A stretch of DNA of 39,358 bases, from assembly GCA_017547585.1 (NCBI GenBank), contig JAFYPH010000056.1, positions 1 through 39,358 of the forward strand. Reading direction: 5' to 3'. Under the pieces are notes generated by a model, which searched no databases, was not told the origin of the DNA, and was given only the letters and a program-made list of their open reading frames with translations. Positions 13,973 through 29,797 of the stretch are shown one piece after another (within the stretch, counting starts at the first letter, position 1; every line of letters starts with the position of its first letter). The position numbers and the translations under genes are program-made. Source of the stretch: Bacteroidaceae bacterium. Lineage in GTDB: Bacteria; Bacteroidota; Bacteroidia; Bacteroidales; Bacteroidaceae.

Positions 13973-13987
13973 ACACCCGACACAAAG

Positions 13988-15121
13988 ATGGCAGTAACCA
14001 TATTACCCGTAAAGACGCGAAAAGAGCTGAAACAGTTTATACGTTTCAACTATGAGCTGTACAAAGAGAACCCCTATTCGGTGCCCGACCTCTACGAGGA
14101 CATGCTGGGCACGCTCGACCCCAAGCGCAACGCTGCGTTCGAGTTCTGCGAGGCTGAATATTTCCTTGCAATACGCGACGGAAAGGTGGTGGGACGCGTG
14201 GCTGCCATCATCAACAGACGCGCCAACGAAAAGTGGAAGATCAATGCCGTGCGCTTCGGATGGATAGACTTTGTGGACGACGAGGAGGTGTCAAAGGCGC
14301 TCATTGAAAAGGTTGAAGAGTGGGGACGCGAAAGAGGAATGGAAGAGATTCAGGGCCCGCTGGGATTCACCGACCTCGACCCCGAAGGAATGCTCATCGA
14401 GGGATTCGACCGCATAAGCACCATGGCCACCATCTACAACTACCCCTACTACCCCGTGCACATGGAGAAGCTGGGATTCGAAAAAGACACCGACTGGATA
14501 GAATTGTTGCTGAAGGTGCCCGAGAAGGTACCCGAGAAGTTCGAGAGAATCTCGGCAATGGTGGCAAAGAGATTCGGGCTGAAGGCAAGAAAGTTCAAGT
14601 CGAATCGCGAACTCGAACGCCTCTACGGAAAAGAGATTTTCGACCTTATAAACAGATGCTACGCACCGCTCTACGGATTTTCGGCGCTGAGCGACAAGCA
14701 GATTGAGCAGTACATTAAAATGTATCTGCCGCTGGTGGACCGACGCATGATTGCGCTCATCACCGACAAGGACGAGAAGCTCGTGGGTGTGGGAATCACC
14801 ATCGCCTCGCTTGCCGAGGCACTGCAGAAGGCCAAAGGCCGACTCTTCCCCTTCGGATGGTTCCACATTGTGAAGGCGCTGTTCCTGAAACGCCCCACCC
14901 GCCTCGATTTTCTCATCGTGGCCATCGACCCCGAGTATCAGGGCAAGGGCGTGAACGCAATAATCATAAACGAGATTATGCCCAACTACATAAAGATGGG
15001 ATTCAAGGACGTGGAGAGCAACCCCGAACTTGAGGAAAACACCAAGGTACAGGCACAGTGGGAGACCTTTGAAAAGGAGCAGCACAAACGCCGCCGCGCA
15101 TACAAGAAAAGCATAAAATAA
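13988..15121 (+). CDS. GNAT-like N-acetyltransferase family protein
   Basis: The 377-residue soluble protein has no signal peptide. The part around residues 45-130 ([53 protein letters not shown] split here for length) and a second part around 285-350 ([23 protein letters not shown]) resemble acetyltransferase folds. The YQGKGV piece is like the acetyl-CoA loop. Proteins of this type are common in Bacteroidota and usually annotated only as GNAT or hypothetical. It lies 15 nt after the exchanger and 7 nt before parE. The substrate is unknown. Confidence 0.7.
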
Positions 15122-15128
15122 CAATCAG

Positions 15129-17066
15129 ATGGACGAAAATATATTTCTCGACAACAACGTACCGACGCCGGTGGAGTACACCGAAGACAACATACGTCAC
15201 CTCAATGACATGGAGCATATACGTACCCGCCCGGGAATGTATATTGGAAAGTTGGGCGACGGCTCGCAGAATGACGATGGTATCTATGTGCTGTTGAAAG
15301 AGGTCATCGACAACAGCATCGACGAGTTCAAGATGAATTCGGGCAAACGTATAGAGATTGACATTGTGGAGAACAAGAGTGTCGTAGTGCGCGACTATGG
15401 CCGCGGAATTCCCCAAGGCAAGCTCATAGAGGCTGTGAGCATGCTGAACACCGGAGGAAAGTACGACAGCAAGGCATTCAAAAAGTCTGTGGGACTGAAC
15501 GGCGTCGGCCTTAAGGCTGTGAACGCCACCAGCAGCCGCTTCGAGGCACGAAGCTACCGCGAGGGTGTCGTGCGCATTGTGTCATTCGAAAAGGGTATTC
15601 TCATCGAAGACCGCACCGAAAAGACCGGCGACGAGAATGGAACATACATTTCATTTACCCCCGACAACGAGCTTTTCGCTGGCTACGAGTTCCGCCCCGC
15701 ATTCATCGAGACGATGCTGCGCAACTACACTTATCTGAACACAGGCCTTACGATACTCTACAATGGCAAACGCATACTCTCGCGCAACGGCCTTGCCGAC
15801 CTTCTGACAGATAACATGACCAGCGAGGGGCTCTACCCCATCATCCACCTGCGCGGCGAGGATATTGAGATTGCAATCACGCACGCCGAGCAGTATGGCG
15901 AGGAGTACTATTCGTTTGTGAACGGACAGCACACTCCGCAGGGCGGTACGCACCAGAGTGCCTTTAAAGAGCTTGTAGCATCGACCATACACGACTTTTT
16001 CACAGCAAAGAATTTCGAGTACAGCGACATCCGCAACGGAATTGTGGCGGCCATCGCCGTAAACGTCGAAGAGCCGGTGTTCGAGAGCCAGACGAAAGTG
16101 AAGCTAGGCTCGCTGTATATGGCACCCGGAGGCGTCAGCGTAAAGAAGTTCATAGGCGACTTTATAAAGGTGGAGCTTGATAACTTCCTGCACAAGAACC
16201 CCGAAATCAGCGAGGAGATGCTGCGCAAGATTACAGCATCGGAGAAGGAGCGCAAAGAGCTCTCGGGACTCGCCAAGCAGGCTCGCGAAAAGGCCAAGAA
16301 GGTGAACTTGCACAACCGCAAACTGCGCGACTGCCGCATTCACCTGAACGACCCCAAGGGCGACCGTCAGGAGGAGAGCTGCATCTTCATCACCGAGGGT
16401 GACTCGGCGAGCGGATCAATAACCAAGAGCCGCGACACGAACACACAGGCTGTGTTCAGCCTGCGCGGAAAGCCGCTGAACACCTACGGGCTGAGCCGTG
16501 CGGTTGTCTACCAGAATGAGGAGTTCAACCTGCTGCAGGCGGCACTGAACATCGAGGACGGCCTCGAGGGATTGCGCTACAACAAGGTTATTGTGGCAAC
16601 CGATGCCGACGTCGACGGAATGCACATTCGTCTGCTGCTCATCACATTCTTCCTGCAGTTCTTCCCCGAACTTATAAAGAAGGGACACGTTTATATTTTG
16701 CAGACACCGCTCTTCCGCGTGCGCAACAAGCGCAAGGCTGCGCGTGGCAAGAAGGCTGCCGACGGCGAAAAGCAGAAGGGAGACTTCGAGACAATATACT
16801 GCTACAGCGAAGAGGAGCGCGTGAAGGCAATAGAGAAGCTGTCGCCCAACCCCGAGATTACACGATTCAAAGGATTGGGAGAGATTTCGCCCGACGAGTT
16901 CCGCAATTTCATAGGCACTGACATCCGTCTGGAGCAGGTGACCATGCACAAGGACGACAAGGTGGACGACCTTCTCTGCTACTACATGGGCAAGAATAGC
17001 ATGGAGCGACAGAATTTCATCATCGACAACCTAGTTGTCGAGGAGGACAAGACCAACGAAGAGTAA
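15129..17066 (+). CDS. parE: DNA topoisomerase IV subunit B
   Basis: The 645-residue type IIA topoisomerase ATPase subunit shows [14 protein letters not shown] and the GHKL motifs ([13 protein letters not shown] with the catalytic Glu and Mg-binding Asn; [20 protein letters not shown]). The transducer domain follows, then the TOPRIM motifs EGDSASGSI and [14 protein letters not shown] prefer ParE over GyrB because of the GKLGDGS-type loop, the short length and the neighbouring coaD and S41 genes, an order usual for Bacteroidales parE. No parC is in the window. Confidence 0.9.
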
Positions 17067-17075
17067 GAGAAGAGA

Positions 17076-17528
17076 ATGGAAAAGATTGCACTATTCGCAG
17101 GAACATTCGCCCCCTACACTGTCGGGCACCACTCGATAGCGACAAGAGCATTGGCGATGTTCGACAAAATAATCATTGCCGTAGGGCACAACAGCAAGAA
17201 AGGCTCGCAGGGCGACACTGCCGAGCGCGTGGAGAGCATCGCCCGCATATACGCCGACGAGCCGCGCATAGAGGTTGTCGCCTACGAGGGGCTGACTGCT
17301 GATTTTGCCAAAGAGCGTGGCGCATGCTGTCTGTTACGCGGAGTGCGCAGCGTGAAGGATTTTGAATACGAGCGCGACCTTGCCGACCTCAACCGCGAGA
17401 TTAGCGGGCTGGAGACTGTTATTCTGCCCTGCGAGCCGCAATATGCAGCCATCAGCAGCAGCGCCGTACGCGAACTTATGAGCTACGGAAAAGACGTAAG
17501 CAAATTTTTACCTAAAAAAGAACAATGA
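17076..17528 (+). CDS. coaD: Phosphopantetheine adenylyltransferase
   Basis: The 150-residue enzyme makes dephospho-CoA from 4'-phosphopantetheine and ATP. The HxGH-type nucleotidyl site is TVGH at residues 15-18, within GTFAPYTVGHH. The C-terminal ISSSAVREL motif binds ATP phosphates, and LLRGVRSVKDFEYE is also typical. The usual Asp of GTFDP is Ala12 here, while Thr10 and His18 are kept. It follows parE by 9 nt and overlaps the protease gene by 4 nt (ATGA), so it is translationally coupled. Confidence 0.95.
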   Translation: MEKIALFAGTFAPYTVGHHSIATRALAMFDKIIIAVGHNSKKGSQGDTAERVESIARIYADEPRIEVVAYEGLTADFAKERGACCLLRGVRSVKDFEYERDLADLNREISGLETVILPCEPQYAAISSSAVRELMSYGKDVSKFLPKKEQ

Positions 17529-19135
17529 AAAGAACAGCATTTATCATATATATGATGCTCGCCCCGCTGATGCTCATGGCACAGGGCGAGAAGAAACGCG
17601 CGATAATTCCCGAGCAGCTGAACAAGCTGATGATTACCGAGAATGTGATTACACGATTCTACGTTGACAGCGTGCAAGAAGCCAAAATGGTCGAAGAGGG
17701 AATAAAGGCCATGCTGAAACAGCTTGACCCCCACTCTACCTACTCGGACCCCAAAGAGGTTAAGAGCCTCATAGAGTCGATGCAGGGCAATTTCGACGGC
17801 ATCGGAGTGCAGTTCAATATGGTGGACGACACGCTGGTGATTATTCAGCCCACGGTGAACGGCCCCTCGGAGAAGGTGGGAGTGCTTGCCGGCGACCGCA
17901 TAATTTCGGTGAACGACACTCTTATTTCGGGAGTGAAGATGGGACGCTACGACATTATGCGCCGTCTGCGCGGAAAGAAGGGCACAAAGGTGCATATAGA
18001 GGTTATGCGCCGAGGCGTGAAAAACCTTATTCCCTTTGACATTGTACGCGACAAAATATCGACAACCACCATCGACGCTGCCTATATGCTCGACAAAAAG
18101 AGAGGCTACATAAGAATTTCGAGCTTCGGACAGAAGACACACGAAGAGTTTGTTGCCAAGCTCGACTCGCTGCAGGGCCTGGGCATGAAAGACCTTGTGC
18201 TGGACCTCCAGAGCAACGGCGGAGGATTGCTGCAGGCATCGGTGGACATTGCCAACGAGTTTCTGAACAAGGGCGAGCTTATTGTCTACACACAGGGACG
18301 AGTGTTCCCCCGCTACGACTATATTGCCAAGGGCGGCGGACGCTTCGGCAAAGGACGTGTGGCAGTGCTCATTGACGAAAATACAGCCTCGGCAGCCGAG
18401 ATTCTCTCAGGAGCCTTGCAGGATTGGGACAGAGGCATCATCGTTGGACGCCGCAGTTTCGGCAAAGGCCTTGTGCAGCGTCCGTTCGACCTTCCCGACG
18501 GCTCTATGATACGACTGACAATCGCACGTTACTACACACCCTCGGGCCGCAACATTCAGAAACCCTACGGCGACTCTATACAGTACCGCGATGACCTTAT
18601 GAAACGCTACAATAGTGGCGAACTTACAAGCGAGGACAGCATACACTTCCCCGACTCACTCAAGGTATTTACCAAGCGTCTCGAGCGCCCCGTATATGGC
18701 GGAGGAGGAATAATGCCCGACTATTTTGTGTCGCTCGACACCACCAAATACACAAAATATCACCGCGAGCTTGTCCGCAAGGGAACAATCATTCAGACCA
18801 CGCTGCGCTATCTTGACGACAAACGCGAAGCAATGAAGAAAGAGTACCCCACATTCGAGGAGTACAAGAAGAAGTTTAAGATCGAAGAGGACCTTCTCGC
18901 ACGTCTGCGCAGTCAGGCCGAGCGCGACAGCGTGAAACTGAAAGACGAAGAGGAGTATGAAAAATCACTGCCGCAGATTCGCCGACAGATGAAGGCACTG
19001 CTCGCACGCGACCTTTGGAACATGAGCGAGTATTTCCAGATTATAAACGAAGAGGATGATATTGTAAACAAAGCACTTGAGCTTATAAAAGAGCGCGACA
19101 CCGATGCCCTGCTTATGAAAAAGAGCAAAAAGTGA
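17525..19135 (+). CDS. S41 family C-terminal processing peptidase
   Basis: The 536-residue periplasmic serine protease has a signal peptide (cleavage near LMAQ, residue 20), a PDZ domain at about 90-165, and an S41 catalytic domain at about 190-375. The Ser/Lys dyad is Ser289 in DENTASAAEI and Lys314 in GRRSFGKGLVQ. DLQSNGGGLL at 227-236 forms the oxyanion/substrate strand. The charged C-terminal region (about 410-530) is helical. CtpA-like enzymes trim or degrade envelope proteins. Last gene of the operon that begins at 13010; it overlaps coaD by 4 nt. Confidence 0.95.
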   Translation: MKRTAFIIYMMLAPLMLMAQGEKKRAIIPEQLNKLMITENVITRFYVDSVQEAKMVEEGIKAMLKQLDPHSTYSDPKEVKSLIESMQGNFDGIGVQFNMVDDTLVIIQPTVNGPSEKVGVLAGDRIISVNDTLISGVKMGRYDIMRRLRGKKGTKVHIEVMRRGVKNLIPFDIVRDKISTTTIDAAYMLDKKRGYIRISSFGQKTHEEFVAKLDSLQGLGMKDLVLDLQSNGGGLLQASVDIANEFLNKGELIVYTQGRVFPRYDYIAKGGGRFGKGRVAVLIDENTASAAEILSGALQDWDRGIIVGRRSFGKGLVQRPFDLPDGSMIRLTIARYYTPSGRNIQKPYGDSIQYRDDLMKRYNSGELTSEDSIHFPDSLKVFTKRLERPVYGGGGIMPDYFVSLDTTKYTKYHRELVRKGTIIQTTLRYLDDKREAMKKEYPTFEEYKKKFKIEEDLLARLRSQAERDSVKLKDEEEYEKSLPQIRRQMKALLARDLWNMSEYFQIINEEDDIVNKALELIKERDTDALLMKKSKK

Positions 19136-19163
19136 TAGAATTGCAAATTTGTGAGATAAGGCG

Positions 19164-19228
19164 TAGCATATATTTGTAAAAGAAATATTGCGGTAGTTCG
19201 CAAAGTAAACCTTTACAAATATATGCTA
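19164..19228. repeat. Inverted repeat with facing promoter-like motifs
   Basis: A perfect 17-bp inverted repeat: 19164-19180 and 19212-19228, separated by 31 nt. Each arm contains TATATTTG (plus strand 19169-19176, minus strand 19223-19216), a match to TAnnTTTG, so the two motifs point at each other. It is not followed by a T-run, so it is not a typical terminator. Confidence 0.65.
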
Positions 19229-19290
19229 TGAATTTAGATACAATGGCCTATACACTGCCGTACCAGTCGAGAATAGTATTTGGAAAGTGA
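19228..19290 (+). pseudogene. Tiny ORF, possible 5' remnant of a lost gene or leader peptide
   Basis: ATG at 19228 opens 20 codons ending in TGA at 19288-19290 (starts MNLDTMAYTL, ends RIVFGK). It lies just downstream of the plus-strand promoter-like motif at 19169-19176 and is followed at 19340 by a terminator. It could be a leader peptide or the stub of a deleted gene. Chance is not excluded. Confidence 0.25.
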
Positions 19291-19339
19291 AGAAAGACAG
19301 ACTTTCGCAAGAAAAAAGGCATAATATGCGCATAGCGAT

Positions 19340-19380
19340 AAAAATAGAATAGCCGCTCCGGGCGGCTATTCTATTTTTAC
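19340..19380. terminator. Bidirectional intrinsic terminator
   Basis: A 16-bp perfect stem (19340-19355 with 19363-19378), 7-nt GC-rich loop, and A/T runs at both ends. It separates the plus-strand operon from the minus-strand AT-rich island. Confidence 0.9.
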
Positions 19381-19424
19381 CAGTGCATATAAATAATATT
19401 TCGTGCCAATCATCGGAATTACGA

Positions 19425-20723
19425 CTATTCTGCTTTATAAAAATCTTCAAACATCGGCATTCCGAAAAATCCATCTTTAAAAGATATAACATATCTATCT
19501 CCAACCTTATAATCATCCATATCTTCTCTGTTAATATCCTTTAAAAATTCCATTTCATTGAGCCTTCTTGAATAATTATTGTCACCATTATCGAATTTGA
19601 ATATTAATGATGGTTTTGATGTTCTTTTACCATTATTAAAATGTATTTCATCAATCGTTGCATTTATCAAATATGGCTTATTTTCAGTTGGCAAAATGCT
19701 GTTCAATGTGTCAAAAATAAAATAACAAGTGCCGGAAACATATAAAGTTAATATGAAAGCTATCTTTGCGGAATTAGCCCAAAAACTTTTCCACGCATAC
19801 TGCATCCAGCTATTTTTTTTGAAAGTTATAATGCGCCTTATAAAATAGATTGAAACAACCGGGACAACAAAATATGGCCAAACAGAGACAATTCCTACAA
19901 ACAACTGTTTCACTGTCGAAACATAAATTATGAAACATATTGCAGAAATAGCTAACAATATGTTCAGCATTTTTTTACTTAATCCCCCATTTGATATTAT
20001 AGAACTTTCCGGTTCGGGAAAAGCAAAATCCCGCCCCTCTACATCATTGGCATATTGTGTATTGTTGTAGAAGTTGTATAAATTCTCTCCACAAAAAGGG
20101 CAAAAGTTCCATGCGATACGTCTTTCCTCTTTGGGCGAAGATATTATATTATGTTCATTTTGGGAAAGCATGTTAAAAGATAGCTCCTTTACACGCTTTA
20201 CTTTTTTTATTATTTCATCCTCTTTTTCGATTATGTAATAATCAGAAACACTTTTTTCGAGTACCGATTTTGTAACGACGAATCTTAATGGGACTAACTG
20301 CTTTGGTTGGTCGTAAAAATACTTCAATATGTTGCAACACATATCAAGCTCATTTTCGCGACGTATCTTTTCGTTTCTATTTTCACAATAACTTTTTACT
20401 CTTTCAATAAGTGAGTCGCTTGTTGCATTTTGTATTTGTTGCGTATTTTCTATATTCTTTGTCGATGCTTCTTCGTTGCTTACATCCTCTATTATCACAT
20501 TGATATATGTGTCGTCGGTATAAAATTTGGCAAGGCATTCACCGCAATAAGGACAATATTTTATTACAATATTAATATGTTGCTTATTTTTAACATTCCA
20601 AATTTTATAAAGAAAGAACCTTGTTTTTTCAACATCATTTAATTCACCAATCGCTATTTCACTATTGGAACAAGTATTATACGATTGATAATCCTTTTTA
20701 AACTTTTCGCAACAAAAATCCAT
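19425..20723 (-). CDS. Membrane protein with duplicated zinc-ribbon module
   Basis: I do not recognise this 432-residue protein. Two related modules are visible. The first (residues 1-70) has CC at 4-5 and KYCPYCGECLAKFY with Cys57/Cys60. The second (about 127-220) has CC at 129-130 and WNFCPFCGENLYNFY with Cys208/Cys211. Both look like a zinc-binding knuckle with a preceding CC helix. Hydrophobic segments at about 252-270, 275-297 and 319-340 anchor it in the membrane, and a beta-rich tail (about 350-432) follows. There is no signal peptide, so the modules are probably cytoplasmic. Base use is clearly AT-rich compared with neighbouring core genes. It lies 15 nt after the lipoprotein gene at 20739. 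Confidence 0.7.
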   Translation of the reverse strand: MDFCCEKFKKDYQSYNTCSNSEIAIGELNDVEKTRFFLYKIWNVKNKQHINIVIKYCPYCGECLAKFYTDDTYINVIIEDVSNEEASTKNIENTQQIQNATSDSLIERVKSYCENRNEKIRRENELDMCCNILKYFYDQPKQLVPLRFVVTKSVLEKSVSDYYIIEKEDEIIKKVKRVKELSFNMLSQNEHNIISSPKEERRIAWNFCPFCGENLYNFYNNTQYANDVEGRDFAFPEPESSIISNGGLSKKMLNILLAISAICFIIYVSTVKQLFVGIVSVWPYFVVPVVSIYFIRRIITFKKNSWMQYAWKSFWANSAKIAFILTLYVSGTCYFIFDTLNSILPTENKPYLINATIDEIHFNNGKRTSKPSLIFKFDNGDNNYSRRLNEMEFLKDINREDMDDYKVGDRYVISFKDGFFGMPMFEDFYKAE

Positions 20724-20738
20724 GATATTGTCTATTGA

Positions 20739-21425
20739 TTATTTCAACAAAGAATCTACAGGGATAAAGATACACCAATCATTGCTATTTGCAAATTTCT
20801 CTCTGTTGTTTTTCCAAAAATCGTTGACTCTTTTCCGCAATTCGTTGTAACCGATTATTATAGAGTCATTTTTACCTACCAAGATAAGTTTGGTTATACA
20901 ATGCGACTTATGGTGGAATAAATTACGTGGTGCATTGTTGGTTCTATAATCATAGCTTATTATTACAGAGTCGTAACTATTTATATTGTAAAAAGCGTAT
21001 GGGGCTATTTTGTAACTCTTTTTAGGTGAAACGTGAATATCTAATGTATCTATCTTTAATTCGTAATTGCTATTTTGGGCAAAATATTGACACTCGCACT
21101 GTTGAGTTTCTCGTTTGAATTTACAAAAGATATAATGTAACAGTCTTTCATCAGACATTTTACCATGATAGTATTTATATATTTCCTCATTTCTAAACAA
21201 TGATGGAGCCCCTTTTGCCACCCGTTTATTATAATCCTTAAAATAGTATTTACTTTCTTTTATAAATCCTTCTTCATCTATTATCAATGTGTCATTATAG
21301 ATGTATAGTTTCTCAATTACATCATTGTTTACGATTATACAATTTAATCTTGCGCGGTACGATAAAAAACACGATGAAAATGTTAGTGAGATAGCAATTA
21401 TAATAAAGTATTGCAAATGCCTCAT
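20739..21425 (-). CDS. Hypothetical lipoprotein
   Basis: The 228-residue product has a lipoprotein signal (LTFSSC, Cys19 as likely lipid site). The mature part is rich in K, Y, N and I and mostly beta-like, with no motif I can name. It is AT-rich like its neighbours. Its start lies 5 nt after the stop of the coding fragment at 21431 and its end is 15 nt before the zinc-ribbon membrane protein, so it belongs to the same minus-strand transcription unit. An immunity or surface role would be guesswork. Confidence 0.65.
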   Translation of the reverse strand: MRHLQYFIIIAISLTFSSCFLSYRARLNCIIVNNDVIEKLYIYNDTLIIDEEGFIKESKYYFKDYNKRVAKGAPSLFRNEEIYKYYHGKMSDERLLHYIFCKFKRETQQCECQYFAQNSNYELKIDTLDIHVSPKKSYKIAPYAFYNINSYDSVIISYDYRTNNAPRNLFHHKSHCITKLILVGKNDSIIIGYNELRKRVNDFWKNNREKFANSNDWCIFIPVDSLLK

Positions 21426-21430
21426 ATTTT

Positions 21431-21619
21431 TTAACGATTTTTGTAATTAGTCTCTATTTCATTTGCTAAATTATCATAGCTCCCATTTGTGGTATAAATA
21501 GCATTTATGTCTCCGTATCTTAATATATGTGTAGCATAATCGATAAATATCTGTCCATAAAATTTTCCGAATCCATTTTCTGTTTGTTGTTTCCAATGTG
21601 TTCGGGCTTTTATAGTTAA
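21431..21619 (-). pseudogene. Coding-like fragment without a start codon
   Basis: On the minus strand, between the stop TGA at 21622-21620 and the TAA at 21433-21431, there are 60 codons without ATG, GTG or TTG at the front. The predicted peptide (ARTHWKQQTENGFGKF, then YGQIFIDYATHILRYG, ending IETNYKNR) has a globular-protein composition. Its stop is 5 nt before the next gene's ATG, as expected for the real 3' end of an operon gene. I read it as the surviving C-terminus of a deleted or frame-disrupted gene. An ORF in another frame (21474-21674) overlaps gene 21616 and looks less protein-like. Confidence 0.45.
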
Positions 21620-22536
21620 TCAAACAATCCCCACGAATCGCAAAATTCAAAATCAACACCTCTCTGTTCCGCAATAAACTTTTCCAATGGGTATATTGTG
21701 GCTTTTCCGTTTTTAACTTTTACGATATAAAATTCTTTGTTTCTACTGATTGCGCACAGAAGTAGTTGTCTTTTTAAACCTACAATATTTGTGTGATTTG
21801 AAAGGGTAGGGCTATAAAAAGGTGTAAAGCAAAAATATGTATAAAAATTATGTTTTATGGCAAGCTTGAGCAATAATTTGTCGCTACTATACATTTTGCT
21901 TGGGTTTGCCGGCTCTATGTATAACGAGTAGAAATTAAAATCATCTGTATGGGATATTTCTGAATAAGCAATAGTTGCAGTATCTTTTACACCATATATG
22001 ACGAAATTTATAGGTTTAAGATATATGCGCTCTTCTTTTATTTGCTTTTTAGCAGGGTATAAAATGTATGAGGTGTCTTTGAAATCCTCAAACTCAGTTC
22101 CTTGCAAAAAGTTATTTACCATACGCCATATATATGTTTTTCTATCTTCCTTGCGAACAAAATGCATCATTGAATGCATGATACTGCGCGTGTAACGGCT
22201 ATTTGAACGTAATGCATACTTGTTGCGGTCTCTCTTTAACCTCTTTTCAAAAACACAATATGCGGGTTTAATCCGTTTATAGAAATTGTGGGTTGTGATA
22301 TTTTCATTTTTGCGCACATCATATTGCGCATCAAATATTGTCAATATTCTTAAGTTTTCATTTTTGCCTATTTTATACCAATCTTGGAAAAGTTTTATAA
22401 TGCAGTTGTTGGCCGAATCGATTCTCTCTTCCGACAATAGTTGCAACAGATGTTTTTTGCCTGTATTATCTTGTGAAAAAATAGGCAGTAATATCTGTGT
22501 GCATATAATGAATAATAATATTACTCGCTGTTTCAT
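21616..22536 (-). CDS. Hypothetical secreted protein, paralogue B
   Basis: The 306-residue protein has a signal peptide (MKQRVILLFIICTQ, cleavage near IFSQ). By eye it aligns with the upstream protein at 22538-23539: KRIKPAYCVF against DCIKPRYMVF, EERIYLKPINFVIY against KEKAYLMPETYIIY, LLLCAISRNKEFYIVKV against EHLCAIDKNNNIYILVK, and ATIYPLEKFI against YIVYPIEGYL. Both end in FD. I chose ATG 22536, 1 nt after the paralogue's stop, over ATG 22560, because it gives a clean signal peptide without overlap. No known family; probably periplasmic or exported. Confidence 0.7.
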   Translation of the reverse strand: MKQRVILLFIICTQILLPIFSQDNTGKKHLLQLLSEERIDSANNCIIKLFQDWYKIGKNENLRILTIFDAQYDVRKNENITTHNFYKRIKPAYCVFEKRLKRDRNKYALRSNSRYTRSIMHSMMHFVRKEDRKTYIWRMVNNFLQGTEFEDFKDTSYILYPAKKQIKEERIYLKPINFVIYGVKDTATIAYSEISHTDDFNFYSLYIEPANPSKMYSSDKLLLKLAIKHNFYTYFCFTPFYSPTLSNHTNIVGLKRQLLLCAISRNKEFYIVKVKNGKATIYPLEKFIAEQRGVDFEFCDSWGLFD

Positions 22537-22537
22537 C

Positions 22538-23539
22538 TTAGTCAAAATTATAATCACCACCGATAAGTTCGCTTTTATTTATATATTGTAGTGAATCTTT
22601 TTGCCATATTCTTTCTCTTAGATACCCCTCTATTGGGTAAACGATATATTGCTCTTGTGGCTCTTTGTTTGCTTTGAGGTATTTGACAAGAATATAAATA
22701 TTGTTATTTTTATCTATTGCGCACAGATGCTCCCTTATCTTAGCATTATAATCGTTTATGTATCCGGTCGTCATTCCCGGAATATTCAAGATAAAAAAGG
22801 CTTTGTAATTGTTTGCTTTTTTTAGTCTGACAAGTTCCTTGTAATCGTATCTTTTGCCGTAATCATTTATTGTTATTAATTTATCTTTGCGTACAAGTTC
22901 AGAATTGTCTGTTTGGTATACAATAACTCCGTCGTTGCGATAAATTATATATGTTTCAGGCATAAGATAGGCCTTTTCTTTGTTTATGGGGCGTTTCTTT
23001 GTGAATAGCTTGGGGATTTTATCGCTATACAAAAAATACGATGGTGTTAAATTAAAAAATCGTGGCGTAACTATTTTAACTATATGATTGTAAACATTGC
23101 TGTTGTAGTTGATGCTATATGCTGAATCTTTAATATTTTTTATCTCTTGAAATTCAATAAGCCTATTATTGTTGCTGGAAATGTTATATGAAATTTTTGC
23201 TCTGCAAATACAGAGATATTTCCCCGATTCGTTTTTCCATTTTTTTATTTTTGAGTTAAAAACCATATATCTTGGTTTTATGCAGTCATATATTTCAGCA
23301 TTGTCAAAATGCGACTTTTTCGTAAATGGCAAAATAAAATCCACAGAGAATATTGGCAGAATATTGTATTCGTTAATATTTCCCACGCAAAACTTATCTT
23401 TTAATATTTCGATTAGTCTCTTCTCTGTAGAGTTTATCTCTGCTTGTGAAAATTTCTCAGAAATACTCCATTGTACCCCTTGCGGAAAAGCTGTGATTGC
23501 GGATAGAAATACCAAGATAAATGTGATGTTTTTAAACAT
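22538..23539 (-). CDS. Hypothetical secreted protein, paralogue A
   Basis: The 333-residue protein has a signal peptide (MFKNITFILVFLSAITAFPQG, split here: hydrophobic core 5-17, cleavage near FPQG). The mature part is AT-rich-encoded, basic, and predicted to be mixed beta/alpha. It is paralogous to the next gene (see 21616-22536) and just longer in the C-terminal third. It is the first gene of the AT-rich unit and has only a poor promoter candidate upstream (TATATCTG on the minus strand, about 23560-23570), so it may also be read through from the dut operon. No function can be assigned. Confidence 0.7.
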   Translation of the reverse strand: MFKNITFILVFLSAITAFPQGVQWSISEKFSQAEINSTEKRLIEILKDKFCVGNINEYNILPIFSVDFILPFTKKSHFDNAEIYDCIKPRYMVFNSKIKKWKNESGKYLCICRAKISYNISSNNNRLIEFQEIKNIKDSAYSINYNSNVYNHIVKIVTPRFFNLTPSYFLYSDKIPKLFTKKRPINKEKAYLMPETYIIYRNDGVIVYQTDNSELVRKDKLITINDYGKRYDYKELVRLKKANNYKAFFILNIPGMTTGYINDYNAKIREHLCAIDKNNNIYILVKYLKANKEPQEQYIVYPIEGYLRERIWQKDSLQYINKSELIGGDYNFD

Positions 23540-23615
23540 ATACTATGTCGTTTAACGTCCAGATATAGAAAAAAATATTTACCGCATAACACATCAAAAG
23601 AGTAAAAAACTTCTC

Positions 23616-24230
23616 TTACATATTTATGTACGACGTCAGGGTGAAAGAATTTTGCCCTGCGTCGTATTTCATTTGCAGGAAATATGTGGGGCAGAAGATT
23701 ATTCGCAAGTTAGCTACGATGCCTTTCTTGTAGAGCATCGAATATCCGGCGTTGGCAATGAAGCGCTTGTGAATGTATCCGCCAACCACCTGGAAACGGT
23801 CGAGTTTCTGCGTGCCTACCTGCTGGAACATATTGTCCCACGTTGCGTCTATCGACAGATGCGAGGGCAGTTTGACAGTCGCGGCAAGGCCGTGTGAGTA
23901 TTTTCCGGTGCGTGTGTTAAAGATTGAACGCGAGAGCAGATAATATCTCTTTGCTGCAGAAAATTCCACCCACATTTGGGGCACAAAGGCCTCTTGCTTG
24001 ATATTATACTGCGCAAAGGCTGCAGCCTTCATCCACGGGAGTAAATCCTGCTTGTAGCTTACATAGGGCGAGGAGTTCACAGAGCCGTCGTCGAAGTTGA
24101 AGGTGGCGGGCAACGACACACGGAAACGCGCCGACTGCACCGTTCCGTCCAATATCTGGCTGTGCAGGGCTGTAACTGCAAAGAGGGAAAGCACGAGAAT
24201 CGAAATTCTCTTGAGGAATATGTTTTTCAT
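23616..24230 (-). CDS. Probable outer-membrane beta-barrel protein
   Basis: The 204-residue product has a signal peptide (residues 1-25, ending LHSQ). The mature part alternates polar and aromatic/hydrophobic residues in about eight short strands (for example ARFRVSLPATFNF, YHGLAATVKLPSHLSID-like stretch, FQVVGGYIHKRFIANAGYSMLY). This suggests a small outer-membrane barrel. I recognise no named family. It begins 22 nt after the EnvC-like gene and is the last gene of the dut-TPR-DUF4292-EnvC group, so an envelope role is likely. Confidence 0.65.
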   Translation of the reverse strand: MKNIFLKRISILVLSLFAVTALHSQILDGTVQSARFRVSLPATFNFDDGSVNSSPYVSYKQDLLPWMKAAAFAQYNIKQEAFVPQMWVEFSAAKRYYLLSRSIFNTRTGKYSHGLAATVKLPSHLSIDATWDNMFQQVGTQKLDRFQVVGGYIHKRFIANAGYSMLYKKGIVANLRIIFCPTYFLQMKYDAGQNSFTLTSYINM

Positions 24231-24252
24231 AGTTTATTTGTTTGCGCAGATG

Positions 24253-25587
24253 CTACAGTTTCAGCCACGGACGGGGGTTCAGCTTCACCTTTTCGTTTCG
24301 TATCTGGAAAAGCAGGGTGGTTGCGCCTGAAACATCCGTTGCAACGTCGGCGAGAATGTCGCCGGTATTAACCTCGTCGCCCTGACTGACCTTTATATTC
24401 TGCAATTTGCAATAGACGGTGAGATATTTTCCGTGACGCACAATGACGAAGGCAAAATCTCCGGCGCGAACAACGGAGGTCACGACACCTTTGAAGACTG
24501 CGCGCGCCTTTGCTCCACGCTCGCCCTGCAGGGTGATTCCGCCGTAGTCGATGCGCACGTTGCCCTTGCCCTCGACGCCGCGCTGCGGGCCGAAGGAGCC
24601 TACAACCATGCAGGGGCCGGTGATGGGCGACGGCAGACGACCTTTATTCTGCTCGAAGGAGCCTGTGAGTTTCTGCATTCCCTTGCTGTTGGGGTTCACC
24701 ACCTCTTTCTCGCGACGCTGCACTTTGGGTGCCGGCTCGTCGGCGGTGGTAGTTTTCTTTGCAACGGCATTGCCGCCTTTCTTGGAAGCTGTATCTTTTT
24801 TCTTTGCATCGGCCTCTTTCTTTTTCTGCGCCGCTGCAAGCTCGGCGCGACGACGCGCCTCAATCTCGCGTTCAATCTCGCGCTCGATGGCTGCATTCAG
24901 ATTGTTAAGCTCTTTACGCTGACGGGTAAGCTCTTTTTCGACCTTCTTTTTCTCGCGTTTGAGCTCTGCTACAAGGCCGCGCTGCTTCTCTTCGAGCCCT
25001 TTGAGAGTCTGCTGCTCCTTCTTCTGCTCTTCGAGCGAGGCTATCTTGCTTGCGCGCACCTTTTCGACCTCGGCGCGTTTCTCTTCAAGAGCCTTTATCT
25101 TCTCCTTCAGCTGGTCGGCGAGCTTGCGGTGGGCGTTCATGTATTCGCGCGTGTAGCGGTAGCGGTGGAGCAGAGAATTGAAATTGTCGGCCGAGATTAT
25201 GAAGAGCAGTTTGTCCTGCAAAGAGCCGTAGCGACGCGCGCGGCGCAGAGCCGCCGCATATTCGTCTTGGGCTCTTTTCACCTGTGCCTCGTCGTGCGTG
25301 AGTGCGCTTGTGAGTTCGGCAATCTCTTTGTCGATGGCTGTAACCTCTTTGCTGAGCAGGGAGACGAGCGATTTCTGCTCTTCGACGCGGGCGGTGAGCA
25401 GATTGAGGTTTTTCAGTTTGGAGGCGACATCCTTTTCCGAGGAGAGGAGTATGCGCTCTTTCTCCTTTATCTGTTGCTGCAGACTGCTGACGCGGCTGCG
25501 CATCTCTTTCACGCTCTTTTGCTGCGACCACGCGGCGCATGCAACAGAGAAAAGCAACATTATAAAGATTATCCTCTTGGCTGACAT
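24253..25587 (-). CDS. EnvC-like murein hydrolase activator
   Basis: The 444-residue periplasmic protein has a signal peptide (cleavage near WSQ, residue 22) and long coiled coils at about 25-260 (K/E/Q-rich heptads). A low-complexity K/A linker at about 250-300 leads to a LytM/M23 domain at 328-444. All three zinc-binding/catalytic His positions are replaced: Asn343 (NVRID), Lys394 (VYCKL) and Leu426 (LLFQI). It is therefore expected to activate an amidase and not to cut peptidoglycan itself, as EnvC does in E. coli. It sits 24 nt after the DUF4292 gene, an order common in Bacteroidota. Confidence 0.9.
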   Translation of the reverse strand: MSAKRIIFIMLLFSVACAAWSQQKSVKEMRSRVSSLQQQIKEKERILLSSEKDVASKLKNLNLLTARVEEQKSLVSLLSKEVTAIDKEIAELTSALTHDEAQVKRAQDEYAAALRRARRYGSLQDKLLFIISADNFNSLLHRYRYTREYMNAHRKLADQLKEKIKALEEKRAEVEKVRASKIASLEEQKKEQQTLKGLEEKQRGLVAELKREKKKVEKELTRQRKELNNLNAAIEREIEREIEARRRAELAAAQKKKEADAKKKDTASKKGGNAVAKKTTTADEPAPKVQRREKEVVNPNSKGMQKLTGSFEQNKGRLPSPITGPCMVVGSFGPQRGVEGKGNVRIDYGGITLQGERGAKARAVFKGVVTSVVRAGDFAFVIVRHGKYLTVYCKLQNIKVSQGDEVNTGDILADVATDVSGATTLLFQIRNEKVKLNPRPWLKL

Positions 25588-25611
25588 ATTTGTAATTCCC
25601 TTTTTTCTATC

Positions 25612-26436
25612 TTAAAATTTAATGCCGTTAAGCAGTGTGGAGACCTCCACTTTCTTGTACGACGAGAGGTCGGTGGTGCCGTTCAGCTTGAAGCTGTCGG
25701 CCTTGGGGCTGCTGAGCTTAAAGTCGAGCTTGTAGTTTGCCACCGAGAAACGTATCTGACGGGGGAAAAGGCGTGCGCCCACAGTTGAAAAGTCGGAGTA
25801 GTTGCAATCGACGCTCAATTTGTTGTCGTAGTTGCCACGGGTGAGCTGCAGGCTGCCGCTGCTCTGCTCTACGTGGAAAGTGTACTGCATGCCCTTCTCG
25901 CGCTCGGTGGTGAGGAGAATCTCGCCGTTGGCAACAGCAACGTCCATCTTTGAGAGGTATTTTTCCACAGGCTTTCCATCGGGAGCAAAAACCTCGTTGA
26001 GCATTATTGCCTCGACCATAGAGTAGTCTATTCCCAGACGTTCGAGGGCCTCGATGTCGCTGTAGCTGACCTCGGCGTACTCGCGGCCGAGACGGTAGAT
26101 GAGCAGCATCTTTTTAGGGGTGAGCTCGGCGCGGGCTACCTCTATGAGGCCGCCGAGGGCATTGACGCTTATGAGCATTCCCTCGCCGCGCTTGATCCTT
26201 ACGTTGCCGTTGGCCGAAAATTCCTTTCCGCCGATGTTCGCCGTGAGCTTCACCTTGGACGAGAGGTGCGAGAGGCTGCTGCTCACTGCCTGCATGCTCT
26301 TGAGCTCTTTCATTGTGACGCTGCCAGCCGATGCGCTGTTCTTTTTAGAGGCACAGCCGCCCACGCCCATGAGAAGCAACAGCATTGCTGCCACTGCCAT
26401 TATATTGCATATTCTACTTTTTCTTTCTCTTTTCAT
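25612..26436 (-). CDS. DUF4292 lipoprotein
   Basis: The 274-residue lipoprotein (lipobox GVGGC, Cys28) has a LolA/LolB-like beta pattern: MQAVSSSLSHLSSKVKLT, IKRGEGMLISVNAL, EVARAELTPKKMLLIYR, ALERLGIDYSMVEAIML. It matches DUF4292. A role in lipoprotein or lipid handling at the envelope is suggested by the fold only. The start overlaps the TPR gene's end by 23 nt; an internal ATG at 26400 would also give a lipoprotein signal without overlap. Same operon as dut and the EnvC-like gene. Confidence 0.85.
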   Translation of the reverse strand: MKRERKSRICNIMAVAAMLLLLMGVGGCASKKNSASAGSVTMKELKSMQAVSSSLSHLSSKVKLTANIGGKEFSANGNVRIKRGEGMLISVNALGGLIEVARAELTPKKMLLIYRLGREYAEVSYSDIEALERLGIDYSMVEAIMLNEVFAPDGKPVEKYLSKMDVAVANGEILLTTEREKGMQYTFHVEQSSGSLQLTRGNYDNKLSVDCNYSDFSTVGARLFPRQIRFSVANYKLDFKLSSPKADSFKLNGTTDLSSYKKVEVSTLLNGIKF

Positions 26437-28183
26437 CAGCTATATATTTCTTTTTCTTAATCTTACGTTTCAATATCTTTGAGTCGTCGCCCATTTTCTG
26501 TGCTTCGAGCCAGAATTCCACCGCGCGCTCGGTGTCGCCGCACATGGCAAAAATGTCGCCGCAGTGAACGTACTCTACGGTGCTCATCTCTTCGTTAGTC
26601 TGTATGAGCTTTTCGGCGTAGGCGCGCGCCTCTTCGTAGCGCTTCTGCATGAAGAGCACCCACATATAGGTGTCAATGTATATGGGATTGTCGGGCTCTT
26701 CTTTCAGGGTTTTCAGGCTCATCTCCTCGGCGCGCTCAAGGTCGCCGCCGTCGAGTGTAAGATAGTAGGCGTAGTTGTTGAGGACTACAATGTTACCCGG
26801 GTCGTAGACTAGCGCCGAGTCGTAGGCTTCGATTGTTGCAGCCATATTTCCAAGCTCGTGCTCGGTGTCGCCTATGAGTGTGAAGAGCTCCGAGACCATC
26901 GAGGGGTCGCACTCTTCGTCGCGACTCTTGAGGCCGCGGCGGTAGCTCTCGATAGACTCCTGCGGCCTTTTCAGCTTGTAGCAGGCGATTCCGCGGTAAT
27001 AGTAGAGCTGCAGAATCTCGGGGTTGTACTGTATGGCTGTGTCGCTGCGTGCGATAATCTCTTCGTAGTCTTTGCGCCCTATCGCGTAGCTCAACAGTTG
27101 CAGCTGGGCCATGCGATTCTCGGGTTCTATGGAGAGTATCTTGTGCAACAGGGGAGTAACCATCTTTTCGTCGGTTTTTTTGTGGGTAAGATACTGCGCG
27201 TAGACCGAGAGCACAGGCAACTGCTCCACCGGCTGGGCCATGAGACGCTCGCACAGATTGATGATGTAGAGGCTGTCGCCACCCGTCTTTTCAATCTCGC
27301 CTATTACCTTGACCAATATTTCGGAGCGCATCGACGAGGGCATCTTTTTGTTCATGAGCAGCGTGTCGACGCTCGACAGGAACTGCTTGTTGTCGCCGTA
27401 GTGCTTGTAATAGTCGACCAACGAAAGTTGCGCCGGCAGATTGTCGGACTCTTGCGACAATACTTCGTTGTATATTTTCAGTGCTTGCGCGGGGTTGTTG
27501 TTCTTTTCGTAAATGTCGCCCAAAAGCACTTTGAATCGCAGGTCGTCGGGGTATTCGGCTGCGAGCTTCGCAACCTCGGCGATGGCCTTGGCGCTGTCCT
27601 GCATCTGTATGCAGATGTTGTACTTGCGCAGGCTTATCTGCTCGCTCTTGCCCTCTTTGCGCTCGTACTCGCCCAGCGCGGCAATGGCCTTGTCGTACTC
27701 GCCCTCTTCGCTGTAGTACCCTGCAAGCACAAGGTCAATCTCGCTGTGGGTGGGAAACTCCTTGCCCATATTTTCGTAGACGGCGATGGCCTCGGCACGC
27801 TGACCGCTATTCTCGTATGCGGCGGCGAGGATGGTGCGGTACCAGAAGTTGCGGGGCTCTTCCTTCACTGCCTGTTGCATGAGGGCGAGTGCTTCGTTCT
27901 TCTTTCCGAGGAACATATAGTAGTTGGAGAGCTCGAAGAGCACTGCGGGGGAATTGGGCTCTATCGACAGACAGTGCTCGAACATTTCGAGTGCATCGTC
28001 GTGGCTCTCTTGCTCTTTGAGTGCGAGGGCCTGAAGATAGTAGTAGTCGAAGGCGCGGCGACGGGCAATAGTGTCGTCGGCAGTCGGAGGGGTGTCAGTA
28101 GAGGGCAACGACGAACGGGCCGGGAGCATCGCTGCTCCAAGCATCAGCATCAACGTGACGATTATTACCCTATAGCTGTTCAT
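26414..28183 (-). CDS. Tetratricopeptide-repeat protein
   Basis: The 589-residue secreted protein has a signal peptide (residues 1-23). About a dozen TPR units follow from residue 45, for example DDALEMFEHCLSIEPNSPAV, NEALALMQQAVKEEPRNFWY, AQALKIYNEVLSQESDNLPA and ERAEEMSLKTLKEEPDNPIY. It is a periplasmic protein-interaction scaffold. The KRKIKKKKYIADEKRKKK tail is strongly basic. It begins 11 nt after dut and its end overlaps the DUF4292 gene by 23 nt, so it is part of the envelope operon. Confidence 0.9.
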   Translation of the reverse strand: MNSYRVIIVTLMLMLGAAMLPARSSLPSTDTPPTADDTIARRRAFDYYYLQALALKEQESHDDALEMFEHCLSIEPNSPAVLFELSNYYMFLGKKNEALALMQQAVKEEPRNFWYRTILAAAYENSGQRAEAIAVYENMGKEFPTHSEIDLVLAGYYSEEGEYDKAIAALGEYERKEGKSEQISLRKYNICIQMQDSAKAIAEVAKLAAEYPDDLRFKVLLGDIYEKNNNPAQALKIYNEVLSQESDNLPAQLSLVDYYKHYGDNKQFLSSVDTLLMNKKMPSSMRSEILVKVIGEIEKTGGDSLYIINLCERLMAQPVEQLPVLSVYAQYLTHKKTDEKMVTPLLHKILSIEPENRMAQLQLLSYAIGRKDYEEIIARSDTAIQYNPEILQLYYYRGIACYKLKRPQESIESYRRGLKSRDEECDPSMVSELFTLIGDTEHELGNMAATIEAYDSALVYDPGNIVVLNNYAYYLTLDGGDLERAEEMSLKTLKEEPDNPIYIDTYMWVLFMQKRYEEARAYAEKLIQTNEEMSTVEYVHCGDIFAMCGDTERAVEFWLEAQKMGDDSKILKRKIKKKKYIADEKRKKK

Positions 28184-28194
28184 AGAATTGCTCG

Positions 28195-28626
28195 TTAGAC
28201 GCCTGTGTGACCGAAACCTCCTGCACCGCGCTCAGTGTCGTCGAGGGTGGTAACCTCGACCCACTCGGCCTGCTCGTGACGCGCAATGACCATCTGGGCT
28301 ATGCGCTCGCCGTCGGTAATCTCGAACGGCTGGTCGGAGAGGTTGACGAGTATCACGCATATTTCGCCGCGGTAGTCGGCGTCGATGGTACCGGGGGTGT
28401 TGAGCACCGTGATTCCCTTTTTAATGGCGAGGCCGCTGCGGGGACGCACCTGTGCCTCGTAGCCGGGAGGCAGGGCCATGTACAGTCCTGTGGGAACAAG
28501 CGTACGCTGCAAAGGGTTCAATACTATGCTATTTTCTATGTTTGCTCTAAGGTCGAGACCCGCCGAGAGAGGGGTTGCATACTCGGGCAACGGGTGCTTG
28601 GACTTGTTTATGATTTCAACTTTCAT
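28195..28626 (-). CDS. dut: dUTP diphosphatase
   Basis: The 143-residue trimeric dUTPase converts dUTP to dUMP and keeps uracil out of DNA. The five family motifs are visible: AGLDLRA (1), PRSGLA (2), [11 protein letters not shown] (3, with catalytic Asp), GERIAQMVI (4) and [10 protein letters not shown] (5). It is the first gene of a five-gene minus-strand operon, as in other Bacteroidota. A TAATTTTG octamer at 28663-28656 lies about 30 nt upstream. Confidence 0.97.
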
Positions 28627-28655
28627 CGCTTTTTTATTTTCTTTATGCGAAAGTA

Positions 28656-28663
28656 CAAAATTA
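28656..28663 (-). promoter_or_regulatory. Candidate -7 promoter motif for dut operon
   Basis: Minus strand TAATTTTG fits TAnnTTTG; no clear -33 element upstream. Confidence 0.45.
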
Positions 28664-28749
28664 TTGCCACTTTCGGCCTCTGTTTGTTTTTTTTAATATT
28701 ATTAAAGTGGGCGTGCGAGGGGCTGAGGGCACTACCCTACTACAAAGCA

Positions 28750-28780
28750 AAAGAACGACAAGCTCTGTTTGCCGTTCTTT
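28750..28780 (-). terminator. Possible terminator after glsB
   Basis: An 8-bp stem (28750-28757 with 28773-28780) extended by 3 more pairs after one mismatch, 7-nt loop. It lies 15 nt after the glsB stop. The T-run on the minus strand is poor. Confidence 0.45.
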
Positions 28781-28795
28781 CCATGCTGTTCATCG

Positions 28796-29797
28796 TCAGG
28801 CCTGATTGCTGCTGTCGGGGTAGAAGACCTTGTGTGCGCCGGTCTTGAGCTCTATCAGCCATGGATTCTCTTTGGCAAAAGACTCAATGTAGCGCATGCG
28901 TTTGTCTTCGAGAATCTCGTCAACAGCTATAAGGATGCCCGTCTCTTCGACATTGCCGAACTCTGTGTTCACCGCTGTTCCGAACGTGCGCATCGTGGGC
29001 GACAGGCCCATATATGCGTTCACAAGCGGGGGGATATTGTATCCAAGGGCACGAACCTCGCGGTTGAGTATCTTGTAGTCCTCGGCAAATGTATCTTCGC
29101 AGAAGAGTGCTTCGAGCTCTTTTTCGTCTGTCTCGAGCAACAGGGGCGACATTGGCTCGATAAGTTTGTCGGGGTCGGCAAAATGTTTCTTCAGGAAATA
29201 GAGTATCATGTCCCTGCCCTGCTTGTGGTACGAGGGGTACATTGTCACCTTTCCGAAAAGATATTTTACGTTGGGGAGGACAACCGTCAGGGCTCCAAGG
29301 CCGTCCCAAAGGTTGTCGAGAGCGAAGAGGCTCTTGCGGCCCATTCTTGTAGATTGGTATTCGAGGGTGACGAACGAGCGTCCAAGCTCAATGGTCACGG
29401 GAAGAATCTCGTCAATGAATCGTTTGGAGAAACGGAACATGTCGTGGGCCGTTGCAAGGATGGGGGTGCCATCTTCGTGGAAACGAACATCGGAGCCCAG
29501 AATGAAGCGGTAGCCACCGATAATGTCGTTTGCATCGGGATTCCACACGATGAGCTGCTTGTAGGGATTCTCCATGGTGTCGAACTCGTCGATGTCCATC
29601 GAGAGGCCTGTACCACCGCCCGCCGCACGGAATGCAATCTCGCGCAGACGACCAATCTCGCGCATCACATTGGGCGAATCGGCTGCCGTCAACACATATA
29701 TTTCGTTCTTGCTGCGATTGGTGAAACGCAATCGCTTGTCCTCAGTTAGTTCCGCCTTGAGCAACTCTTTCGGAACCGGAGCTATAATCTCTTCCAT
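28796..29797 (-). CDS. glsB: GlsB-like N-acyltransferase (glycine lipid synthesis)
   Basis: The 333-residue protein has a GNAT/hemolysin-type acyltransferase pattern: VMREIGRLREIAFRAAGGGTG, DANDIIGGYRFILG, ELGRSFVTLEYQ and ALTVVLPNVKYLFGKVTMYPSY (pieces shown separately). This is the OlsB-like family. In Bacteroides, the glsB/glsA pair makes glycine lipids: GlsB N-acylates glycine with a 3-hydroxy fatty acid, and GlsA adds the second acyl chain. The adjacency to the PlsC-like gene 9 nt upstream supports this role. The substrate is inferred from that precedent, not from a motif. Confidence 0.85.
   Translation of the reverse strand: MEEIIAPVPKELLKAELTEDKRLRFTNRSKNEIYVLTAADSPNVMREIGRLREIAFRAAGGGTGLSMDIDEFDTMENPYKQLIVWNPDANDIIGGYRFILGSDVRFHEDGTPILATAHDMFRFSKRFIDEILPVTIELGRSFVTLEYQSTRMGRKSLFALDNLWDGLGALTVVLPNVKYLFGKVTMYPSYHKQGRDMILYFLKKHFADPDKLIEPMSPLLLETDEKELEALFCEDTFAEDYKILNREVRALGYNIPPLVNAYMGLSPTMRTFGTAVNTEFGNVEETGILIAVDEILEDKRMRYIESFAKENPWLIELKTGAHKVFYPDSSNQA

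What the first reader, a model, noticed from the sequence alone, without database searches (positions are those of the whole stretch)
19425..23539. AT-rich island of unrecognised exported and membrane proteins inside a core-gene neighbourhood
Four consecutive minus-strand genes and one fragment are visibly AT-rich while both flanks (S41 protease/parE on one side, dut-EnvC operon on the other) are not. The set comprises two exported paralogues, a start-less fragment, a lipoprotein and a multi-pass protein with zinc-ribbon-like modules, with short gaps throughout. None matches a family I know. The pattern would suit a horizontally acquired surface or interbacterial-competition cassette (exported factors plus lipoprotein/membrane immunity), but that function is inference.
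Basis: partly seen in the sequence, partly recalled or inferred. Interest (0 to 1): 0.72.

Follow-up and report, generated by a model that had tools for sequence, protein, structure and literature searches.

The report
AT-rich gene island, probably borrowed immunity
A foreign-looking block of four genes sits at a spot that is empty in the closest relative; one of its proteins weakly resembles an exported protein encoded right behind a bacterial Rhs-type toxin gene, so the block may protect the cell from neighbours' toxins, but that role is not proven.

Summary
The four genes in 19425-23539 are 30-33% GC (GC3 0.29-0.33) against 49-57% (GC3 0.62-0.74) for nine flanking genes. The nearest congener by S41 identity, G025, is collinear over 16 kb but has 135 bp where the window has about 4.5 kb. 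Gene B is found in 0 of 36 congeners.

Genes in transcription order: A and B (exported paralogues), a start-less 58-codon remnant, a lipoprotein, and p4 (two CC...CPxCG modules, three predicted membrane segments, soluble tail). In 393 genomes of the order, the only other match to the A/B profile is a probably exported protein encoded 18 bp behind a 2524-aa Rhs gene. The match is weak (E 9e-4 per genome), though B exceeds 2000 of 2000 shuffles and A 1983. p4 has a 37%-identical solo homologue in congener G002, so the block is separable cargo.

Best reading: an acquired set of envelope-directed orphan immunity-type genes without a recombinase (about 0.5). It is not filed as rAID. A structure model of A was too poor to use.

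The parts
19136..23615 (-). Island as a whole: sequence between the stop of the S41 protease gene and the stop of the 204-aa gene, absent from the nearest congener
   Evidence: Comparison with 16 kb of G025: window matches 12979-19129 and 23622-31520 are 135 bp apart there; GC 0.29-0.36 over 19001-23500
22538..23539 (-). Gene A, exported protein of 333 aa, first gene of the block
   Evidence: ORF; one hydrophobic N-terminal segment; no Pfam, NCBIfam or PADLOC family, two weak partial PHROG hits, best E 0.004 over 43 residues; paralogue of B
21616..22560 (-). Gene B, exported paralogue of A (314 aa as listed from GTG; probably 306 aa from the ATG at 22536)
   Evidence: sub-cut-off hit to DUF7829 and weak hit to PADLOC PDC-M24B; in 0 of 36 congeners; N-terminal half resembles the protein encoded behind an Rhs gene in G380
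21431..21607 (-). Start-less 58-codon open frame, apparently the remnant of a larger gene
   Evidence: Frame read; no NCBIfam or Pfam match; no relative in genome contigs, plasmids or phages, one unfollowed short match in a viral contig, only weak matches in 354 genomes
20739..21425 (-). Predicted lipoprotein, 228 aa (Cys after the hydrophobic segment, ...TFSSC)
   Evidence: ORF, hydrophobic segment; no Pfam or PADLOC hit, NCBIfam and PHROG hits only at E 0.03 or worse; no relative in plasmids or viral contigs, only weak matches in 354 genomes
19425..20723 (-). p4: two CC...CPxCG zinc-ribbon-like modules, three predicted membrane segments, soluble C-terminal tail of about 90 aa
   Evidence: full-length homologue at 37% identity in congener G002, standing alone
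19339..19379 (.). Perfect 18-nt inverted repeat with 5-nt loop, terminator-like, downstream of p4
   Evidence: I5
19164..19228 (.). Pair of perfect 17-nt inverted repeats 31 nt apart, each arm holding TATATTTG
   Evidence: I7; two exact matches; 0 of 100 shuffles gave two, with up to 3 mismatches; role unknown

Best explanation
The block is an acquired insert between two convergent runs of core genes (well supported). It carries envelope-directed genes that most likely act as orphan immunity-type cargo: proteins kept without the matching toxin, which neutralise toxins delivered into the periplasm or inner membrane by neighbouring bacteria (inferred). A and B are exported tandem paralogues, and their N-terminal region is most like a probably exported protein encoded directly behind an Rhs gene in another genome of the order, the usual place of a cognate immunity gene (similarity and position shown; homology probable, immunity function inferred). 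The proposed mechanism is direct binding and occlusion of the incoming toxin domain in the periplasm. The remnant before the lipoprotein may be the tail of a displaced toxin domain, with the lipoprotein as its partner (inference, no homology found). p4 would place its C-terminal tail in the periplasm if its N-terminus is cytosolic, as the basic loop between segments 2 and 3 suggests (inference); it belongs to a separable family present elsewhere in the genus.
For: Acquired: GC and GC3 gap; empty site in a genome collinear on both sides; B in 0 of 36 congeners; A, lipoprotein and p4 sought as one query in 9 congeners, only p4 found, in 1 of 9. Immunity: A/B profile against 393 genomes gives the own genome plus one place, E 8.9e-4; that place is the first gene behind a 2524-aa protein with RHS, SpvB and TcdB-mid Pfam domains, with a paralogue 0.4 kb further on and a further RHS-bearing ORF downstream. 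B against it: score 86 against a shuffle mean of 36.8, 0 of 2000; A: 17 of 2000; B by BLASTP E 1e-5 as a single comparison; hhalign of the A/B profile 69%. No RHS_repeat match in the own genome, fitting orphan status. Published precedent: Bacteroidales carry low-GC, co-oriented orphan immunity arrays (PMC12247911, abstract and passages; PMC10470768, abstract and one section).
Against: At E 8.9e-4 about 0.35 chance hits are expected over 393 genomes, so the search match alone is not significant. The paralogue behind the Rhs gene does not match A or B (427 and 1147 of 2000 shuffles; hhalign 0.8%); against both proteins together hhalign falls to 45%. In a pool of 656 ORFs, B and the 209-aa protein find each other (E 0.016 and 0.011), but A and that protein do not list each other at E up to 10 (the A list shown was cut at nine lines). 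The C-terminal halves give at best 46 of 2000. A class-wide search with the widened profile gave five weak matches besides the own genome; the two inspected are small proteins of another sort. Nothing shows that the proteins behind the Rhs gene are immunity proteins. The lipoprotein and the remnant have no credible relative. The solo p4 homologue argues against one functional unit.
Confidence: 0.5

Rival explanations
1. A decaying scrap of a mobile element or of a lost effector locus: the genes are passengers with no current role, on the way to deletion.
For: A start-less remnant lies in the block; no tRNA, end repeats or recognised integrase remain; the nearest congener lacks the block.
Against: The four genes are open over 228-432 codons and closely spaced except at the remnant; p4 is conserved over its full length at 37% identity in another species, which suggests selection on that family.
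Confidence: 0.2
2. An anti-phage defence module: envelope proteins plus a zinc-ribbon membrane sensor acting together.
For: AT-rich acquired islands often carry defence genes (recalled); weak PADLOC hit of B to PDC-M24B, E 0.002; partial PHROG hits of p4, best E 2e-7, family of unknown function.
Against: No nuclease, ATPase, TIR or other usual effector domain in Pfam; no other PADLOC hit for the four proteins at E up to 10; p4 occurs alone in G002; exported paralogues are unusual in phage defence (recalled).
Confidence: 0.12
3. A secreted or surface weapon cassette: A and B are effectors or adhesins and the lipoprotein and p4 protect the producer.
For: Two exported proteins followed by a lipoprotein and a membrane protein in one direction.
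Against: A and B carry no recognised toxin or adhesin domain; their only match in the order is the small gene behind the toxin, not the toxin; p4 stands without A and B in G002.
Confidence: 0.08
4. An assembly artefact: foreign sequence joined into the contig.
For: The genome is a fragmented assembly of 65 contigs, 85% complete; no reads were available.
Against: Both flanks stay collinear with G025 right up to the island, so an artefact would need two false joins at one point; the p4 family exists in the same genus.
Confidence: 0.05

Closest known systems
rAID (recombinase-associated acquired interbacterial defence) arrays of Bacteroidales
   Same: Low GC (<41%), co-oriented genes, acquired, presumed orphan immunity (definition read in PMC12247911)
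   Different: No tyrosine recombinase seen on the 39-kb contig; only four genes, three of them over 300 codons (rAID genes are described as about 100-300); no shared intergenic motif seen; products exported or membrane-bound
Tandem paralogues behind the Rhs gene in G380 (L069:2598-4264)
   Same: Probably exported (N-termini read by eye), in tandem; N-terminal block of about 85 residues of the first alignable with B (0 of 2000 shuffles)
   Different: 209 and 222 aa instead of 314 and 333; the 222-aa paralogue does not match A or B above shuffles; C-terminal halves hardly alignable; beside a toxin-like gene, which the window lacks
Solo p4 homologue of congener G002 (L112:8634-9932)
   Same: 432 aa, 37% identity over nearly the full length, same two CC...CPxCG modules, membrane segments and C-terminal tail
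   Different: Stands alone between an oxidoreductase-like and an adenylate-kinase-like gene (labels by eye), about 44% GC
DUF6980 (PF22400)
   Same: p4 modules resemble it (E 1.5e-4; homologue 6.6e-4)
   Different: Below the curated cut-off (22.4 against 27 bits); a domain of unknown function; no paper found by the name

Membership tests
rAID system | Predicted tyrosine recombinase upstream of the array | tested here: not met
   No recombinase among 10 large flanking ORFs by Pfam (two of the ten had no family at all) nor recognised by eye among the other window ORFs. The rest of the genome was not searched for one
rAID system | Two or more co-directional genes below 41% GC | tested here: met
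   Four genes, 30-33% GC, all on the minus strand
rAID system | Conserved intergenic motifs | tested here: inconclusive
   Gaps of 1, 190 (with the remnant) and 15 nt leave little room; one search shows only two-copy short repeats, none lying in two of the gaps; the published motifs were not compared
rAID system | Genes homologous to cognate immunity genes of T6SS | tested here: inconclusive
   No named immunity family in Pfam or NCBIfam; only the weak Rhs-linked match
Rhs-associated immunity protein (type of L069:3635-4264) | Sequence homology to the gene behind the toxin | tested here: inconclusive
   B 0 of 2000, A 17 of 2000 shuffles, hhalign 69%; the paralogue is not matched
Rhs-associated immunity protein (type of L069:3635-4264) | Adjacent to a toxin gene | tested here: not met
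   No toxin gene recognised in the window; no RHS_repeat match in the own genome. Orphans by definition lack this
Rhs-associated immunity protein (type of L069:3635-4264) | Neutralises the toxin | not testable with these tools
   Needs binding or protection assays
DUF7829 (PF25167) | Score above the curated cut-off | tested here: not met
   B 20.6 against 28.6 bits; the best-scoring DUF7829 protein (L072) is a 557-aa protein of different make-up
DUF6980 (PF22400) | Score above the curated cut-off | tested here: not met
   p4 22.4 against 27 bits

The most novel reading that the evidence does not exclude
A and B define a new family of exported, duplicated immunity proteins that guard the periplasm against Rhs-delivered toxin domains, spread as small recombinase-less islands separately from their toxins, with p4 as an independent zinc-ribbon membrane immunity or sensor family of the genus.
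Probability: 0.3. Interest if true: 0.6.

Novelty: new variant of a known kind. Interest (0 to 1): 0.4.

Why it matters
The orphan immunity arrays described as rAID in Bacteroidales are recombinase-linked (PMC12247911, passages read). If this block is what it seems, orphan immunity also travels as small inserts without a recombinase and covers toxins that act in the envelope, and A/B and p4 become testable new protein families. If not, it is an ordinary species-specific island of unknown genes.

Tried and rejected
DUF7829 as the identity of B: rejected, sub-cut-off and a different kind of protein. Similarity of the p4 tail to the 177-aa membrane protein of the G380 locus: rejected, 310 and 339 of 1000 shuffles reach the scores; BLASTP E 0.06, not in the tail. 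The other weak p4 hits in the order (3 besides the own genome, E 3e-4 to 8e-4): the one in G393 lies in an RpoN-like ORF (label by eye) and is taken as noise; those in G426 and G279 hold stops and were not inspected. The remnant/lipoprotein query gave five weak matches besides the own genome (E 0.004-0.008). Four were looked at and lie in ordinary-looking ORFs or cross the joint of the query; one (G269) was not. One of them, 41% identity in a LOG-like gene of G209 (TIGR00730-type, recalled), raised the idea that the remnant is a LOG tail; 1 of 354 genomes and no Pfam hit make it chance. Viral-contig match of the remnant (L101): 37% over 38 residues, not followed. Class-wide A2 matches, five besides the own genome: the two in G490 and G693 are small proteins (DUF4476-like by recall); the other three were not inspected. 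Class of the Rhs C-terminal domain in G380: no Pfam match better than E 0.056 and no PDB match better than 0.052; a papain-like reading of its Cys/His/Asp is mine and untested. Lipoprotein against A, B and p4: 165, 228 and 49 of 500 shuffles, no similarity. Collection scans without a credible relative: B in genome contigs; p4 in plasmids, phages and viral contigs; lipoprotein in plasmids and viral contigs; A in plasmids; A/B in viral contigs; remnant in plasmids, phages and genome contigs; the G380 proteins in viral contigs and plasmids. A and the lipoprotein were not searched in phages, and A, lipoprotein and p4 not in genome contigs. PDB sequence search gave nothing better than E 0.5 for the four-row profile and 1.6 for p4. 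One sub-threshold Rfam match (STnc240, E 0.33, at 19309-19380) is taken as chance. Promoter and terminator scans were at the level of shuffles. Structure of A with B as the only other row: mean pLDDT 33, so no fold search was made. p4 and the lipoprotein were never folded.
Full report
Observation. GC drops to 0.29-0.35 between 19501 and 23500; by gene it is 0.30-0.33 with GC3 0.29-0.33, against 0.49-0.57 and 0.62-0.74 for nine flanking genes. In transcription order the block is A (333 aa), B (314 aa as listed), a start-less remnant of 58 codons, a lipoprotein (228 aa) and p4 (432 aa), all on the minus strand. They follow, in the same direction, the dut, TPR, DUF4292-like, EnvC-like and 204-aa genes (labels from the finding or by eye) and are convergent with the S41 protease gene (Pfam S41).

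Acquisition. Of 44 genomes of the genus, own included, the S41 gene is found in 44 and EnvC in 39. Taking the best match of each, S41 and EnvC lie on one contig in four genomes besides the window's own (G025, G021, G002, G066) and next to each other only in G025, the nearest relative by S41 (92% identity). Most of the others are fragmented, so adjacency across contig ends cannot be excluded there. In G025 a 16-kb stretch is collinear with the window at 79-85% DNA identity, and 135 bp separate the flank matches where the window has 4492. So there is one informative empty site, not many. B is absent from 36 of 36 congeners searched. A, lipoprotein and p4 as one query against nine congeners gave a single match, p4 in G002; the remaining 34 congeners were not searched for those three on purpose. 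No direct repeats mark the ends, no tRNA lies in the window, and no integrase or recombinase was recognised, so the route of entry is open; exchange through the flanking genes would do.

The proteins. None of the four exceeds a curated cut-off in Pfam or NCBIfam. A and B are paralogues. p4 holds two similar modules, CC...CPYCGE and CC...CPFCGE, with 0 of 2000 shuffles reaching their alignment score, then three hydrophobic segments and a soluble tail. Its best library matches are partial and fall on the zinc-ribbon modules: two PHROGs of unknown function (E 2e-7 and 3e-7), a Lar-like PHROG (1e-4) and DUF6980 (1.5e-4). The G002 homologue keeps the modules, the FDTLN and DNNY stretches and the tail and stands alone between an oxidoreductase-like and an adenylate-kinase-like gene at about 44% GC. 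Hence p4 is a family of its own within the genus and not a fixed partner of A and B.

The lead on function. A profile of A and B against 393 genomes of the order found the own genome and one other place, G380:C63. That place is a 209-aa protein with a signal-peptide-like N-terminus (by eye) whose gene starts 18 bp after a 2524-aa ORF with RHS, SpvB and TcdB-mid domains. A 222-aa paralogue (E 7e-8) follows after a short ORF that looks to me like a displaced toxin tail, and a further ORF with an RHS domain lies downstream. This is the layout of a polymorphic toxin with immunity genes (recalled). The alignment of B with the 209-aa protein spans about 85 residues of the mature N-terminus: 0 of 2000 shuffles for B, 17 of 2000 for A; hhalign 69%. 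In a pool of 656 ORFs from the 113 sources held, B's E-value to it is 0.016 and the next unrelated ORF is at 1.0.

Weight against it. The search E-value alone is what 393 genomes would give by chance about once in three tries. In the pool of 656 ORFs, A and the 209-aa protein do not find each other within the lists shown. The 222-aa paralogue does not match A or B above shuffles, hhalign drops to 45% when both G380 proteins are used, and the C-terminal halves give 46 of 2000 at best. The four-row profile over 295 genomes of the class rang in six, own genome included; the two inspected are small proteins of another sort, which shows that a signal peptide plus Lys/Ile-rich sequence can mimic the pattern. 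Of the 12 genomes of the G380 family searched, only G380 itself holds the G380 proteins. The structure model of A is unusable (mean pLDDT 33).

Comparison with known systems. Orphan immunity arrays are established in Bacteroidales. PMC12247911 (abstract and 12 passages read) describes rAID by a predicted tyrosine recombinase, co-oriented short genes (below 41% GC in its detection rule) and conserved intergenic motifs. PMC10470768 (abstract and one section read) reports orphan tdi genes with other putative immunity genes nearby. The present block shares low GC and orientation but shows no recombinase, so it is not filed as rAID; whether it shares the motifs was not properly tested. It may still work like an orphan immunity array. 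Searches of the paper library for DUF6980 and DUF7829 returned none, as did one for Muribaculaceae with type VI secretion, immunity genes and genomic island; other paper searches were seen as listings only. The species and family of the window's genome were not identified.

Verdict. The island is real and acquired. Orphan immunity cargo is the best single reading at about even odds; decay, phage defence and a weapon cassette follow. The interest is moderate: new uncharacterised families with one suggestive context.

Noticed in passing
window 19164-19228: Two perfect 17-nt inverted repeats 31 nt apart between the S41 gene and p4; each arm holds TATATTTG, which fits the TAnnTTTG -7 box of Bacteroidota promoters (recalled), pointing towards each other. 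Of 110 fetched loci only the three that copy this part of the window hold it.
   Followed up: partly
L069 1-12000 (G380:C63): A large Rhs/SpvB-type gene followed by two paralogous, probably exported proteins, a displaced toxin-tail-like ORF and a further RHS-bearing ORF with small neighbours: a rich toxin-immunity-like array with unassigned domains.
   Followed up: partly
G002:C23:8634-9932 (L112): Solo p4 homologue beside an adenylate-kinase-like gene in a congener; its presence across the genus was tested in 9 of 43 congeners only.
   Followed up: partly
G013:C59:110850-112019 and 154124-155293: Two S41-like matches with identical scores on opposite strands of one contig, perhaps an inverted duplication or an assembly duplicate.
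   Followed up: no
window 4645-8244: Two adjacent large proteins with signal-peptide-like N-termini, the second with a transglutaminase-like look (recalled), beside rplS and frr (recalled labels).
   Followed up: no
genus-wide, S41 and EnvC loci: The S41-EnvC neighbourhood is not conserved: adjacent in the window and G025, but about 26-125 kb apart in the three other genomes with both best matches on one contig. The core-gene neighbourhood itself seems recently rearranged.
   Followed up: partly
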